A stretch of DNA of 20,484 bases from an uncultured Rikenellaceae bacterium. Lineage in GTDB: Bacteria; Bacteroidota; Bacteroidia; Bacteroidales; Rikenellaceae. Numbering within the stretch: the first letter of the stretch is position 1; each line of letters begins with the position of its first letter. Below are positions 11,642-19,620 of this stretch, piece by piece. The translations under genes were made by a program, and so were the position numbers. The notes under the pieces were generated by a model that saw only the letters and a list, made by a program, of their open reading frames with translations, ran no database searches and was not told the DNA's origin. The stretch spans positions 1 through 20,484 of the forward strand of contig CASDWR010000069.1 in NCBI GenBank assembly GCA_949284665.1, in the 5' to 3' direction.

Positions 11642-12745
11642 TTATGCTTCTCCGTCCAGTTTCGCAAGCGCAAAAGCATAGGCACCGAGCGAAATCGCCA
11701 TACTTGCTCCGAGTTTCGAAGTAATCACGCCCACCCGTTTTTCAGGATCGTATACCACCTCGTCGTCCGATCCGAAGACTTTGATTTTTCGCTGATCTCC
11801 GCGAGCGAACCGGTCGAACTCGGTTTCGTCATCCAGATCATACACCTTCATCTGTACTCTGTCGAGTTTGTCGCCACCGAGGGTTTCGATTTGCGAACGC
11901 ATCTCCCGCAGCAGGGCAGGCATAATCAAATCATTCGAGCGAGTGATATTTCCCCCTATCACAATCAACCCATCGATCATGGTGACAGCCGTAGCCATGG
12001 CATCCCCGGCAATTTCGCCCATTTCGGCAAAAGCCTTAAGTGCAGCATCCCTGTCGCCTTCCAATTGTCCGCGAGCGATCTGACTAATCATATAGGGATC
12101 CAGATCCGGTCGTGTATCGCCGGAAAGTTCAGCATAAACTCTTTTGATCGCCCGGGCAGAAACACCCTCCTCAACAATCACGCCGGGCATTTTCTTGTGA
12201 CGCAGACAGAATGTCTCCACACACGAATTATCTCCGATATGCAACTTGTTGTCAGCTACGAATCCGAACCCGAATCCGGTACCGAACGTATATCCCAGAA
12301 GATTTCTGTATTGTTTTTCACTCCCTTTGCGACGCAGTTTTTCGTTCACTTCCGGCAATACCCCTGCCAAAGCCTCGCCATATGCGTACAAATCGGCATC
12401 GTTGTTGATGTATACCGGGATTCCGAAACGGGATTCAAGAAAGGCTCCCAAAGCCACCCCATCACGGAATGAAGGGAAATTTGGCAGATACCCGCCGATA
12501 ATTCCGTTGGGATAATCGGCCGGGCCGGGAAAGGCGAAACTGATGGCTACCGGTTTTTCCGACAACTGTTTTTTCACACGGGTAAAACCCTCCACCATCG
12601 TCATCAAACATTTTTCAAGGTTATCCGCATTCGAAGGCATGGAGATCGGTTCGGTTACGAATTTGTTTCCGCGTACGGCCCCGAATACGAAATTCGTTCC
12701 GCCGGCATCGAGAGTCAGTACGACTCGAGAATCAAATTGATACAT
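11642..12745 (-). CDS. ROK-family sugar kinase
   Basis: Cytoplasmic ATP-dependent sugar kinase of the ROK/ASKHA fold, 367 residues, probably phosphorylating a hexose freed by the neighbouring hydrolases. The ATP-binding phosphate-1 motif is LDAGGTNFVFGAV (Asp13). VYINNDADLYAYGEA carries the likely catalytic Asp116. GYTFGTGFGFGFV (151-163) is the glycine-rich loop that in most ROK kinases reads GTGIGGG. The zinc-binding CxCGxxGCxE motif of many ROK proteins is absent; HIGDNSCVETFCLRHKK stands there, so this is a divergent branch. No DNA-binding domain is present, so it is not a NagC/XylR-type repressor. It is somewhat longer than the usual 300-320 residues, with an insert near FARGDQRKIKVFGSDDEV. 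It has its own terminator and a separate upstream region. Substrate unknown. Confidence 0.85.
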   Translation of the reverse strand: MYQFDSRVVLTLDAGGTNFVFGAVRGNKFVTEPISMPSNADNLEKCLMTMVEGFTRVKKQLSEKPVAISFAFPGPADYPNGIIGGYLPNFPSFRDGVALGAFLESRFGIPVYINNDADLYAYGEALAGVLPEVNEKLRRKGSEKQYRNLLGYTFGTGFGFGFVADNKLHIGDNSCVETFCLRHKKMPGVIVEEGVSARAIKRVYAELSGDTRPDLDPYMISQIARGQLEGDRDAALKAFAEMGEIAGDAMATAVTMIDGLIVIGGNITRSNDLIMPALLREMRSQIETLGGDKLDRVQMKVYDLDDETEFDRFARGDQRKIKVFGSDDEVVYDPEKRVGVITSKLGASMAISLGAYAFALAKLDGEA

Positions 12746-13103: not shown

Positions 13104-14003
13104 TCACCCATGAATTCGCAATTTGCGTGATTTTCGGTATTCGGAAGGAGAACACCCTTTTTGCCGTCGAAAAAATTTGGACGGTGTCGCCTGGTCGGAA
13201 AAGTGGAGCATGAGGGCAATTTCCTGTACGGACTTGTCCGTATCATCCAACAACTTGACAATTTCACCGATAAGCATGCGATTAATCATTCCCGAAACGG
13301 ACTCTCCAGTAATTCGGCGAACGATTCGACTCAGATATTGCGGTGTAATGCAAAGCAATGATGCATAGAATCCGACCGTATGTCCCTGTTGAATATACTG
13401 CGGCAACAAACGGGTGAATTGCATAAACAACTTGTCCATACGTCCCGATTCCGATTGCTCTCCTCCACTCCCCGTTCGATGCAGATACGAATCAGCGACA
13501 TCGAGCAAGAACATCCAAAAAGCGTTTTTCAGCATCTCGGAACGAAAGTAGTGCGATCTGTTTCGCAACACGGCCTCGATATTTTCGATTCGTTGCCAAT
13601 AACCTTCCATCGTGGCTCTCTCCTCGACGAATACAGGGCTTTTTTGGGTTTCGAGTATGTAAGAGAATGGGAAAGGGGGTTTATTTTTAATCAGATCGCT
13701 CAAGAAATTCTCTGTGAACAATAACTGACAAGCTTGCAGGTTTCGTGAAATGGAGATCAGTTCCAGTGGCATCACATCGAGGATATCGGCAAATCCGTTT
13801 CGGGAGAGAGAACAGGCACGGCCATCTATCCGAACATGCATCTCACCCTCGCGGACCAACAAAAAAGAGTGGACCCCTTCGAAAACCATGGGGGTCGAAG
13901 TCCATGTTTCGGCCGTTATTTTCCACAAAGCGAATCCCTCATCCGAAAAAAGGCAATAACGGCCATAAAGAGTCGTGAAATCCTTGAAATCCTTGAAATC
14001 CAT
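13104..14003 (-). CDS. AraC/XylS-family transcriptional regulator
   Basis: DNA-binding regulator of 299 residues. The N-terminal half is a cupin-like sensor region (FEGVHSFLLVREGEMHVRIDG). The C-terminal ~95 residues form the double helix-turn-helix of the family: GFYASLLCITPQYLSRIVRR (first HTH), then SVQEIALMLHFSDQATPSKF and FRRQKGCSPSEYRKS (second HTH and signature end). The gene is divergent from the efflux operon starting at 14420, the usual place for a regulator of such operons in Bacteroidetes, so control of that operon is the simplest inference. The GC-richer glycan genes lie on the other side and could also be targets. The first residues, MDFKDFKDF, come from a 9-bp tandem repeat. 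The start at 14003 follows a good promoter by about 19 bases. Confidence 0.92.
   Translation of the reverse strand: MDFKDFKDFTTLYGRYCLFSDEGFALWKITAETWTSTPMVFEGVHSFLLVREGEMHVRIDGRACSLSRNGFADILDVMPLELISISRNLQACQLLFTENFLSDLIKNKPPFPFSYILETQKSPVFVEERATMEGYWQRIENIEAVLRNRSHYFRSEMLKNAFWMFLLDVADSYLHRTGSGGEQSESGRMDKLFMQFTRLLPQYIQQGHTVGFYASLLCITPQYLSRIVRRITGESVSGMINRMLIGEIVKLLDDTDKSVQEIALMLHFSDQATPSKFFRRQKGCSPSEYRKSRKLRIHG
13977..14001. repeat. 9-bp tandem repeat at the start of the AraC gene
   Basis: The unit GAAATCCTT occurs 2.8 times in perfect tandem (13977, 13986, 13995) and ends at the start codon. On the coding strand it encodes the repeated DFK of MDFKDFKDF. The unit is a multiple of three, so slippage would add or remove three residues without a frameshift. 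Confidence 0.85.
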
Positions 14004-14195: not shown

Positions 14196-14273
14196 ATATC
14201 GACAAATATTGTTTCCAGATATTCCGATTCCCTAATAGAAACCGCAAACAGGTTTTATATTGACAAACACTGT
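14196..14273. repeat. Imperfect 17-bp direct repeat pair, candidate regulator sites
   Basis: ATATCGACAAATATTGT (14196-14212) and ATATTGACAAACACTGT (14257-14273) agree at 14 of 17 positions; all three differences are transitions. The starts are 61 bp apart, close to six helical turns, so both would face the same side of the DNA. AraC-family proteins often bind direct repeats of about this length. The sites lie between the regulator and the efflux operon. Function is inferred. Confidence 0.45.
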
Positions 14274-14419: not shown

Positions 14420-14848
14420 ATGTACATAAAAATGAATAGAAACAAATTTTTAAATGTCATGATTCCGGCAGGTATGATGGCATTGTTTATCTCGTCCTGT
14501 ACGGGTCGCTCCGTCTCGGAGAGGACAATCGACTATCCGATACTTGTCGTGACGACAGGCAACGAGACCCTGTACACCTCATATTTGGCAACGATCAGAG
14601 GGCGCCAGGATATCGAGATATACCCGCAGATATCCGGAAAAATCACAAAAGTATGCGTAAAGGAAGGAGAGGTGGTTCGAAAAGGGCAAACACTTTTCGT
14701 AATCGATCCGGTTCCCTACGAAGCGGCCTTGCGGGTTGCCGACGCCAATCTTGCCGCAGCCGAAGTGGGAGTCGAATCCGCACAACTCGACTACGAGAGT
14801 ACCAAAGAGTTGTATGAACATCAGGTCGTCTCGTCGGGCATAGTATGA
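14420..14848 (+). pseudogene. Truncated RND membrane fusion protein (AcrA-like), N-terminal third
   Basis: N-terminal remnant of the periplasmic adaptor of a tripartite efflux pump; 142 residues against the usual 350-400. It has a lipoprotein signal (MALFISSC, Cys27 from the first ATG; MNRNKF at 14432 is an alternative start), the first barrel strands, the lipoyl half-motif RGRQDIEIYPQISGKITKV, VKEGEVVRKGQTLFVIDPVP, and the first helix of the hairpin ending LYEHQVVSS. Family members normally continue into the second hairpin helix and further domains. Here the frame gives only G-I-V and a stop, and those bases read in another frame as RND pump sequence. The breakpoint is therefore near 14826-14838. 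Without the second lipoyl half and membrane-proximal domains it should not work as an adaptor. Confidence 0.9.
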
Positions 14849-16149
14849 CAGGAGGCAGCGGTTCTTCAAGCGGTATGTTGGTACTGCAACTCAAGGACTG
14901 GAGTGAACGGAGAGGCGAAGACCACTCTTCAACGGCAATCATGACACGGCTGAACGAAGACATGCGTCACATCACCGATGCTGAAGTTTTCGTCATGGCC
15001 CCGAGCATGATCGACGGTTACGGTACAGGTAACGCCGTCGAGTTATACCTGCAAGACCGGAAAGGGGGTGAGATTCGTGATTTCTACAACATCACCCAGA
15101 ATTTCCTTGCTGTCCTGAACAACAGGGAAGAGGTTATGTCGGCCTTCAGTTCTTTCAAAGTAGACTATGTGCAGTACGTAGTGGACATCGATGCCGCCAA
15201 ATGCAAACGAGCCGGGATCTCACCATCCGACATTCTGGATGTGATTTCGGGTTATTACGGAGGAATTTATGCTTCGAATATCATCCGGTTTTCGAAAGTC
15301 TACCGAGTAATCATTCAGGCCGATCCCGAATATCGCCTTGATCCGGGCTCGCTCGACAACATCTATTTCCGTGTCGGCGATAAAATGGCCCCTGCCAGCC
15401 AATACGTTACACTCACAAAAACTTACGGTCCCGAAGGGCTCAACAGGTTCAATCTTTTCAATGCCATTTCAATCAACGTCACAATAGCCGACGGGTACAG
15501 TTCGGGCGATGTGATTGCCGCCATATCCGAAGTGGCCGGCGAAACGCTTCCCGAAGGGTACAGTTACGAATTCGGCAGCTCCTCGCGAGAAGAACACGGT
15601 TCGAACAACACCGTCTTCATCCTTGTTGTTTGCGTCATTTTCATCTACCTATTGTTGTGTTCGTTATACGAGAGTTTCTTTGTGCCGTTCGCTGTCATTC
15701 TTTCCGTTCCGTTCGGTATTTTGGGTTGTTTCGCTGCCGCCAAAATCTTCGGTGTGGAGAACAACATCTATCTTCAAACGGGAATGATCATGATTATTGG
15801 CCTGCTGGCAAAAACCGCCATCCTCATCACCGAATATGCAGCACAACGTCGAGAAGCAGGCATGAGTATCGAAGAAGCAGCATACGATGCAGCAAAAGTT
15901 CGTCTGCGTCCGATTCTGATGACCGTCCTTACTCTGATCTTTGGCATGTTGCCTCTTTTGTATGCCACTGGCGCCAGTGCCAACGGGAACCGTACCTTGG
16001 GAGCCGGAATCGTAGGCGGCATGCTCATCGGCACGATCGCCCTGCTCTTTTTCGTCCCGCCGCTTTTCATCCTCATGCAACGCTTGCAGGAAAAATACGG
16101 ATTCATCATACACAGAAAAAATGAAGACCATGAACAACTTAATAGTTAA
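14845..16149 (+). pseudogene. Truncated RND efflux pump (AcrB-like), C-terminal ~40%
   Basis: C-terminal remnant of an inner-membrane RND multidrug transporter: 434 residues against about 1030-1060. It begins in the family motif normally around residue 600; in the pump frame the sequence before the ATG reads VGHS and continues MTGGSGSSSGMLVLQLKDW. Retained are part of the porter PC region, the docking region (FRVGDKMAPASQYVTL), and membrane helices 8-12, including the helix-10 Lys in GLLAKTAILITEYA (Lys323, equivalent to AcrB Lys940) and RLRPILMTVLTLIFGMLPL. Helices 1-7 with the helix-4 Asp pair of the proton relay are missing, so transport is not expected. The ATG overlaps the preceding stop as ATGA, so the fragment could still be translated. 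The end overlaps the outer-membrane factor start by 29 bp. Confidence 0.93.
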
Positions 16150-17479
16150 TCGGACACCGCTCTATCGGATATTGCGGATTATACTTCCCGCTGCAATTTG
16201 TTGCGCTGTAACGGGATGCGGAATTTACGACACATTCCGGTCCTCGCAATACAGGATCGACAACTCGGCCTACGGCGATATTCCCATTTCGGACACGACC
16301 TCAATGGGTACGATCCGGTGGCAGGACTTTTTCCACGACGATGCGTTATGCAGACTGATCGACACTGCATTACGGAACAATGCGGATCTCCAAACGGCCC
16401 AAATGAAAACCGAAGAGGCACAGGCAGCACTCCGTTCGTCAAAACTGGCTTTTCTGCCCTCGTTCGATGTTTCGCCGGAAGTTGTTTACGATGGAGCGAC
16501 AACCGTACGATTGCCGGTAAATGCCAGTTGGGAAGTAGACCTGTTCGGATCACTCCGCAATGCCAAACGCGGAAAACTCGCCGCATTGTTGCAAAGCGAT
16601 GCCTATGCACAGGCCGTACGTTCGCAACTGATAGCTACGGTAGCTACGACCTACTACTCCCTATTGGCACTCGATGCCCAGCAGGAGATCTATAAAGAAA
16701 CAGAACAAAGTTGGAAACAAAATGTAGAAGTCACACGCCGTTTGATGGAAGCGGGGCGATACAACGCTGCATCGCTGGCACAAACCGAAGCCGATTACTA
16801 CAATGTCCGTAACAATCTTGTCGACATTGAACAACAAATTCGGGAAACGGAAAACCGTCTCTGTTCCTTGCTCGGCTGGACCCCCCGGACGATCGATCGG
16901 GGTTGCTTGAAAGATTGGACCAGACCGGAAATCGTATCCGTCGGGGTCCCGGTCCGCACGCTGGCCAATCGTCCGGACATCAAGCAATCGGAATATGCCC
17001 TTGCCGAAACCTTCTATTCGGTCAACATGGCACGTTCGGCACTCTATCCATCATTGACAATTTCGGGTAGCTACGACTTTCGTGAAACGTTTTACGAAGC
17101 GATCGGATCCCTGTTACAACCTCTTTTCCAACGCGGATCGTTACGGGCCAATCTGAAGATTGCCGAAGCGCAACGCCAGGAAGCAGAAATCGCTTTCCGG
17201 CAATCGGTCATCGATGCCGGAATCGAGGTGAACGATGCATTCATTGCTGTCAAGAGTTCCCGAGCCAAACGTGAAAACTGTGCAAAACAGGTCATGTACT
17301 TGCAAAATGCGGTAACCTGTACGCAGTTGCTGATGAAACACGGCACTACGACCTATCTGGAGGTACTTGCTGCACAAGAGGGTTTGTTGGAGGCACAAAT
17401 CAACGAAGTCGTAAACAGCCTGTCGGAAATTTCAAGTACAATCACGCTGTATCAGGCACTCGGAGGAGGGGCAGTTTGA
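16121..17479 (+). CDS. RND efflux outer-membrane factor lipoprotein (OprM/NodT family)
   Basis: TolC-like trimeric exit duct of a tripartite efflux pump, 452 residues, a normal length. The lipoprotein signal ends in AVTGC (Cys33; MNNLIVN at 16130 is an alternative start). The family pattern of two OEP repeats is clear: WQDFFHDDALCRLIDTALRN, NADLQTAQMKTEEAQAALRS, LPVNASWEVDLFGSLRNAKR, VRTLANRPDIKQSEYALAET, SALYPSLTISGSYDF, and the ending LLMKHGTTTYLEVLAAQEGL. No internal stop or frameshift is seen. It overlaps the RND remnant by 29 bp, so it was the third gene of the operon. With its pump and adaptor broken it is either an orphan or serves another pump. Confidence 0.93.
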   Translation: MKTMNNLIVNRTPLYRILRIILPAAICCAVTGCGIYDTFRSSQYRIDNSAYGDIPISDTTSMGTIRWQDFFHDDALCRLIDTALRNNADLQTAQMKTEEAQAALRSSKLAFLPSFDVSPEVVYDGATTVRLPVNASWEVDLFGSLRNAKRGKLAALLQSDAYAQAVRSQLIATVATTYYSLLALDAQQEIYKETEQSWKQNVEVTRRLMEAGRYNAASLAQTEADYYNVRNNLVDIEQQIRETENRLCSLLGWTPRTIDRGCLKDWTRPEIVSVGVPVRTLANRPDIKQSEYALAETFYSVNMARSALYPSLTISGSYDFRETFYEAIGSLLQPLFQRGSLRANLKIAEAQRQEAEIAFRQSVIDAGIEVNDAFIAVKSSRAKRENCAKQVMYLQNAVTCTQLLMKHGTTTYLEVLAAQEGLLEAQINEVVNSLSEISSTITLYQALGGGAV

Positions 17480-18249: not shown

Positions 18250-19620
18250 ATGGACAAAGAGTTATTATTCGAACGTACTTCCGTACCGAAGGCCGTTCTC
18301 ATCAATGCCGTACCGGCGATTGTCAGTATGGTGGTGATATTGGCATACAACATAGCCGACACCTTTTTCATCGGTCAAACCGGCGACGAGTTATAAGTTG
18401 CCGCCGTATCGCTGGCCACCCCGGTTTTCCTTCTTTTCATGGCAATCGGCACACTCTACGGCATCGGTGGCACATCCGTCATCTCACGTGCTTTCGGGGA
18501 GAGGAAAGACGATTATGCACGCCGGGTAAGTTCCTTCTGTTTTTACGCCTCTCTTTTCACCGGAATTCTATTTATCATCCTTTTTTATTCCGGGATGGAT
18601 ATGATACTTTCCTGGGTCGGGGCGAGCACAGCAACTCGTGACTATGTACGCGTCTACCTCGAATGTGTGACATGGAGTGCTCCGTTTGTTATTCTCTCCA
18701 CTGCTTTCAGCAACATCATCCGCGCCGAAGGTCGCTCCATGGAAGCGACCACGGGCATGATGGCCGGAACGATTGTCAACATTGTGCTCGACCCGATCCT
18801 GATCTCCGTGCTCGATATGGGAATCGAAGGCGCGGCATGGGCAACGGTCGCAGGCAACCTTCTCGCGGCAACCTACTACTGGATCATTCTTATCGGCAAG
18901 AAATCGCAACTTTCCATAGCCTGGAAGGATTTACGACCGGATACAAAACTTCTGAAAGACGTTTTTGCAATCGGCATACCGGCTTCGCTCAACAGCATCA
19001 TGATGAGTATCTCGAACATCGTATTGAACCTGTTTTTGTCATCATACGGAGACATTTCCGTAGCGGCAATGGGAGTTGCCATGAAGGCCAACATGGTAGT
19101 TGTGTTGCTGCTGATCGGACTGGGACAAGGCATACAACCTCTGTTGGGTTACTGTTATGGCTCAGAGAAACAGGTACGTTTCAAACGAGTAATCCGTTTT
19201 TCGAATGTTCTGGCAGTTGCCATGGGCACATTTTTAACAGCGGGATGCTATCTTTTTGCCGAAGAGATTATCCGTATATTCATCGACTCGTCCGAACTGT
19301 TCGAACATGGCGTTCTTTTTTTACGTATCCTTTTGACGTCCGGCCCTTTTCTCGGGATATTATTCGTATATAACAACGCCCTGCAAGCCGTAGGAGCTGC
19401 ACGCGACTCGCTCCTCCTTTCATTGAGCAGACAAGGATTCATCTTTCTGCCCTGCCTGGTAATCTTTAACCGACTTTTTCACTTGGGAGGATTGGTTGTC
19501 GCACAACCCGTTGCAGATATTCTCTCCTGTCTGATAGCGTATCTGTTGTTCCGGCATACGATGCGTCAAAGGTCACAGGGAAAAGAGAGCCGATTACAAT
19601 TGTTGTCCGACCAACCATGA
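18250..19620 (+). pseudogene. MATE-family efflux transporter interrupted by one nonsense codon
   Basis: Na+ or H+ coupled multidrug exporter of the MATE family, 456 codons plus stop, a normal family length, but with an in-frame TAA at 18394-18396. The frame is otherwise continuous: FFIGQTGDEL, stop, VAAVSLATPVFLLFMAIG. Relatives normally have Gln here (Gln-Val-Ala-Ala-Val-Ser), so one C to T change (CAA to TAA) explains it. I start at the ATG at 18250 (MDKELLFERTSVPKAV); ATGs at 18214 and 18220 are also in frame. MATE features downstream include GIGGTSVISRAFGERK, SAPFVILSTAFSNIIRAEGR, GIEGAAWATVAGNLLAA and GQGIQPLLGYCYGSEKQVRF. Reinitiation at 18439 would lack the first helix and half of the second, so function is doubtful unless the stop is read through. 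Confidence 0.92.

What the first reader, a model, noticed from the sequence alone, without database searches (positions are those of the whole stretch)
14420..16149. Internal deletion joins an RND adaptor to the tail of its pump
The adaptor frame is normal to LYEHQVVSS, then enters sequence that in a different frame reads VGHSMTGGSGSSSGMLVLQL, a motif normally near residue 600 of the RND pump. About two thirds of the adaptor and 60% of the pump, roughly 2.5 kb, are missing. The joint has short GTC/TCG repeats (GTCGTCTCGTCGG, 14826-14838), compatible with a microhomology deletion. The new joint yields an ATGA stop/start overlap, so the pump tail could still be made. Either a real loss of a tripartite exporter or an assembly collapse.
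Basis: partly seen in the sequence, partly recalled or inferred. Interest (0 to 1): 0.72.

Follow-up and report, generated by a model that had tools for sequence, protein, structure and literature searches.

The report
Recent deletion breaks a bacterial exporter
A gut bacterium has lost the middle of the genes for a three-part export pump through one apparently real deletion, and several relatives have broken the same pump in other ways, which suggests that it is often dispensable or costly there.

Summary
An RND exporter operon lacks about 2.55 kb: the adaptor is native up to VVS (ending at 14833), then runs into the pump near residue 609. About 65% of the adaptor and 59% of the pump are gone; the outer-membrane gene is whole.

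Assembly collapse is unlikely. A slightly different adaptor piece on another contig ends in the same joint-made residues (P0240), and the identical 434-aa tail also lies on a contig longer than the window (P0001). Among 272 fetched proteins the best full-length pump is 87% identical to the tail, so no intact pump of this species was seen.

The tail shows no clear excess of changes at conserved sites, so the deletion looks recent.

Wider finding: of five related operons that share a divergent araC gene, four are broken, each differently; of 37 other RND operons put through the same check, none is. A wider listing holds one broken pump outside this group. This resembles the published repeated loss of gonococcal mtrCDE. 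Whether selection or neglect drives it is not shown. A known kind of event, of modest interest.

The parts
13104..14003 (-). Divergent AraC-type regulator gene, shared with the L026, L028, L034 and L076 operons
   Evidence: Pfam HTH_18 and HTH_AraC; 48-52% identical araC genes in the same divergent place in the four relatives
14420..14848 (+). Remnant of the RND adaptor gene, native up to about 14833, then 5 codons made by the joint
   Evidence: P0240 ends in the same residues
14831..14845 (+). Deletion joint: adaptor codons for VVS end at 14833, pump codon for the M of SMTGG starts at 14845; 2549-2571 bases missing here against five relatives
14845..16149 (+). C-terminal piece of the RND pump gene, open frame of 434 aa
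   Evidence: ACR_tran 609-1020 of 1021; identical protein on two contigs
16121..17479 (+). Outer-membrane factor gene (NodT type), whole
   Evidence: OEP, outer_NodT above its curated cut-off; single open frame

Best explanation
One real deletion of about 2.55 kb removed the last two thirds of the adaptor gene and the first 59% of the pump gene of an AraC-linked RND exporter operon. The exporter is very probably dead: the adaptor remnant stops soon after its lipoyl-like part, and the pump remnant lacks its N-terminal half with the DD motif (residue 404 in L034) that couples protons in AcrB (recalled). The outer-membrane gene is whole and may still be made. The loss is recent compared with the distance to sequenced relatives, yet is carried by more than one allele. 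Shown: the missing stretch, the joint in a second allele, the whole outer-membrane gene. Inferred: loss of export, recency, and that the joint arose by a simple deletion with little or no homology.
For: Intact operons of the same order in relatives; joint placed by five of them; same joint-made ending SGIV in P0240, a different allele on a 1165-base contig; identical free-standing 434-aa tail on a 30,069-base contig; best full-length pump only 87.1% identical to the tail among 272 fetched proteins; 8 changes of 262 at sites invariant in nine others, against 9 of 263 (L027), 20 of 274 (L033) and 5 of 259 (L028).
Against: No reads were mapped. The DNA of the 1165-base and 30,069-base contigs was not seen, only their proteins. 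Exact P0239 (142 aa) was found on the window's contig alone. An intact adaptor of this species was not searched for at full length. The outer-membrane gene being whole gives no proof of use. L026 (1 of 255) and L034 (0 of 254), which are close to each other, have fewer changes in the tail than the window.
Confidence: 0.87

Rival explanations
1. Assembly collapse or chimaera: the assembler skipped 2.5 kb and the genome is intact.
For: The genome is a fragmented assembly (281 contigs, 76.6% complete). A neighbouring gene (ROK) has its best matches outside the assigned genus, so the contig may even be misbinned.
Against: The joint-made ending is seen in a second allele with two other residues (P0240); the free-standing tail is seen on a longer contig; at most about 3 bases could be shared at the joint, too few for a repeat-driven misjoin (inference); no closely similar full-length pump turned up.
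Confidence: 0.06
2. Repeated loss driven by selection: this AraC-linked exporter is costly in these gut bacteria, so different species break it independently; the window's deletion is one case. This is an account of why, and can be true together with the best explanation.
For: 4 of 5 AraC-linked operons broken, each differently, against 0 of 37 other operons given the same check (Fisher p 4.5e-5; without the window 3 of 4 against 0 of 37, p 3.8e-4). P0241, an adaptor of 181 aa that seems to lack an internal stretch, is on 20 contigs. Published parallel in gonococcal mtrCDE (PMC7431566, abstract seen).
Against: The group was defined after looking and its members are related, so the p values are only a guide. 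Two of the lesions are single stop codons in metagenome assemblies, one with coverage 5.7 by its contig name (L028). The broken pump in G232:C11 shows that breaks occur elsewhere too. Loss through lack of use gives the same picture. No phenotype is known.
Confidence: 0.3
3. The remnants are kept for a new use, for example to keep the outer-membrane gene translated through the ATGA overlap.
For: Tail frame of 434 codons is open and shows no clear excess of changes at conserved sites; adaptor piece 0 of 47; the outer-membrane gene starts inside the end of the tail frame.
Against: A recent deletion explains the open frames just as well. The ATGA overlap follows from the frame of the joint. No other species with the same fusion was seen.
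Confidence: 0.06

Closest known systems
HAE-1 type RND tripartite efflux operons (AcrAB-TolC and MexAB-OprM type; NCBIfam RND_mfp, TIGR00915, outer_NodT)
   Same: Gene order adaptor, pump, outer-membrane factor; all three pieces match these families
   Different: The middle of the operon is deleted, so two of three parts are fragments
Loss-of-function alleles of mtrCDE in Neisseria gonorrhoeae (Ma et al. 2020, PMC7431566; abstract seen)
   Same: One RND-type exporter operon broken again and again
   Different: Here between species of uncultured gut Bacteroidales rather than within one pathogen, on few genomes, with no phenotype or niche link shown
AraC-linked RND operons of L026, L028, L034 and L076 (Alistipes-named MAGs)
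   Same: Same divergent araC gene and operon; pump tail 84-86% identical to that of L026, L028 and L034
   Different: L034 is whole, the other three carry other lesions; L026, L028 and L034 have a tetR-type gene before the adaptor, of which no trace was found in the window

Membership tests
Working HAE-1 RND tripartite exporter | Full-length adaptor of about 370-380 aa | tested here: not met
   142 aa, native to VVS only
Working HAE-1 RND tripartite exporter | Full-length pump of about 1040 aa with the DD motif in its N-terminal half | tested here: not met
   434 aa, profile 609-1020; DD motif is at residue 404 of the intact L034 pump, in the lost part
Working HAE-1 RND tripartite exporter | Outer-membrane factor | tested here: met
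   452 aa, outer_NodT above cut-off
Inactivated RND operon by internal deletion | Remnants line up with both ends of an intact operon in relatives, with one gap | tested here: met
   2549-2571 bases missing against five relatives
Inactivated RND operon by internal deletion | Joint present outside this one contig | tested here: met
   P0240 ends in the same joint-made residues; P0001 on a second contig; seen as proteins, not DNA
Inactivated RND operon by internal deletion | Loss of export activity | not testable with these tools
   Needs an assay
Repeatedly inactivated exporter (mtrCDE-like pattern) | Excess of independent breaks over comparable operons | tested here: inconclusive
   4 of 5 against 0 of 37, but a small group chosen after looking

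The most novel reading that the evidence does not exclude
One AraC-linked RND exporter is under repeated, selection-driven inactivation across Alistipes-like gut bacteria: making it is costly in their habitat, so different species break it again and again by different lesions while intact copies persist in others. It would be a commensal counterpart of gonococcal mtrCDE loss.
Probability: 0.3. Interest if true: 0.5.

Novelty: new member of a known kind. Interest (0 to 1): 0.3.

Why it matters
A single broken operon is ordinary. The clustering of independent breaks in one exporter group could matter: it points to a pump whose cost or uselessness in the gut could be measured, and it warns that counting RND genes in metagenome-derived genomes can overstate the number of working exporters.

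Tried and rejected
Assembly collapse was tested by looking for the joint elsewhere and is disfavoured by P0240 and P0001. Relaxed selection in the tail was tested and not clearly seen. I considered that loss of the local tetR-type regulator came first: it is present in L026, L028 and L034, cut short in L076, and left no trace in the window, but L026 and L028 are broken with the regulator present, and L027 and L033 are whole without it, so this was left. I considered a shared hot spot because P0243 also ends at VVS (contig of 7498 bases), but could not tell a contig end from a break. The adaptor search accepts only proteins of about 78-248 aa, so its many short adaptors give no rate. Literature: one search for Alistipes, efflux, pseudogene and chicken listed one paper, not on this subject by its title and abstract start; one search on efflux loss of function listed 15 of 104 papers, of which I opened the outline and abstract of one. 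I make no claim that repeated loss in Alistipes is unpublished.

Full report
What is there. The window is the whole contig C69 (20,484 bases) of an unnamed, fragmented genome, G000 (1.89 Mb, 281 contigs, 76.6% complete). At 14420-14848 lies a 142-aa piece of an RND adaptor, at 14845-16149 a 434-aa C-terminal piece of an RND pump, and at 16121-17479 a whole outer-membrane factor. A divergent AraC-type gene lies at 13104-14003.

The joint. Intact operons of the same order were found in L033 (the same place as G020:C2), L034, L027 and others. In five relatives the adaptor runs on past VVS for some 240 residues and the pump has about 609 residues before the M of SMTGG. The window passes from one to the other across 11 bases, so 2549-2571 bases are missing. 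Only about bases 14831-14833 could be shared by both sides, so microhomology is short and inferred.

Real rather than collapsed. A protein search with the adaptor piece (72 candidates, 34 hits) found P0240: 129 aa, 98% identical with two differing residues, on a 1165-base contig, ending in the same SGIV that only the joint can encode. The exact 142-aa piece was found on the window's contig alone (P0239). A search with the tail found the identical 434-aa protein on two contigs, the longest 30,069 bases, longer than the window's own (P0001). A search with the tail part of the L034 pump scored 7998 candidates and listed 120. Among all 272 proteins fetched, the best full-length pump is 87.1% identical to the tail (P0128), so no intact pump of this species was seen.

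Age. At tail residues invariant in nine other sequences the window has 8 changes of 262; L027 has 9 of 263, L033 20 of 274 and L028 5 of 259, while L026 and L034, close to each other, have 1 of 255 and 0 of 254. For the adaptor piece the window has 0 of 47, for the whole outer-membrane gene 13 of 173 (L033 12 of 172, L027 9 of 169). Four-fold sites in the tail differ by at least 55% from the nearest of these relatives, so a long neutral period should have left many changes. I infer that the deletion is recent compared with that distance.

The same operon in relatives. L026, L028, L034 and L076 share the divergent araC gene (48-52% identical). L026 (the same place as G171:C59) has an in-frame stop in its adaptor at about residue 240 of 382; L028 (G180:C7) has an in-frame stop in its pump; L076 (Candidatus Alistipes excrementipullorum, G028:C71) has lost the adaptor and the front of the pump, has lost a further stretch inside the pump and another from the pump end into the outer-membrane gene, and has a frameshift near the end of that gene; L034 (G177:C63) is whole. 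So 4 of 5 with the window are broken. L026 and L028 were called from single assemblies.

Controls. Of the 68 loci, I put 40 through the frame check (L026-L063, L071, L076) and added L023, the window genome's second RND operon. The 37 outside the AraC-linked group (L027, L029-L033, L035-L063, L071 and L023) show no break in adaptor or pump, 0 of 37; a stop flagged in L061 lies at the very start of the match, and L048 has no outer-membrane gene on its stretch. The other 28 loci (L064-L070, L072-L075, L077-L093) were not checked. Fisher p is 4.5e-5, or 3.8e-4 without the window. The group was defined after looking and the loci are related by descent, so these values are only a guide.

A wider look. 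A search of 268 genomes of the family with the tail printed 150 pump places and said that more were not listed (my count of the rows). Nine have frames under 1000 aa. By frame and contig lengths seven of these run to a contig end; the two left are the window and G180:C7 (L028). Against the pattern, G232:C11, outside the AraC-linked group, has an internal stop in its pump; G232:C10, also flagged, was not checked. L076 does not appear in that list because its pump is in pieces; it was met again through its outer-membrane gene. Nine adaptor places flagged with a stop, other than L026, were fetched and have it only at an end of the match, or none in my alignment.

Mechanism. The pump remnant lacks the N-terminal half with the DD motif (residue 404 of the L034 pump; its role is recalled from AcrB), and the adaptor remnant lacks most of its length, so export through this system is not expected. 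The outer-membrane gene is whole, and its start overlaps the end of the pump frame. The ATGA overlap follows from the frame of the joint. The same genome keeps one intact RND operon on another contig (C274, L023).

Why it is lost is open. Ma et al. 2020 (PMC7431566; [quoted passage not shown] The pattern here is alike in form only. Neglect without selection explains it as well.

Verdict. It is a new case of a known kind of event; the repeated breakage in one exporter group is the part worth following.

Noticed in passing
18250-19620: A MATE-type exporter gene also looks interrupted: a frame starting at 18250 meets a stop at 18394-18396 and goes on open in the same frame to 19620; the 393-aa part from 18439 matches a MATE profile only from position 45. 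No close relative was found in the other 22 genomes of the genus.
   Followed up: partly
14197-14208 and 14258-14269: Two copies of an element like TATYGACAAAYA between araC and the adaptor, the only two matches of my pattern in the window; similar elements lie in the same gap in L026, L028 (one each) and L076 (two), with none by this pattern in L034. Possibly a regulator site.
   Followed up: partly
11642-12745: The ROK-family gene on this contig has its best matches (up to 73%) in other genera of the family and none at E 1e-90 in the other 22 genomes of the assigned genus, so the contig may be misbinned.
   Followed up: partly
L026 2414-3019, L028 2399-3031, L034 1677-2252, L076 527-814: A tetR-type gene stands between araC and the adaptor in L026, L028 and L034 and is cut short in L076; the window has no trace of it.
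   Followed up: partly
P0241, P0244, P0245, P0248 (protein lists): Several short adaptors look like separate breaks in other species: P0241 (181 aa, 20 contigs) seems to lack an internal stretch; P0244, P0245 and P0248 share nearly the same start and then differ. Contig ends were not excluded.
   Followed up: no
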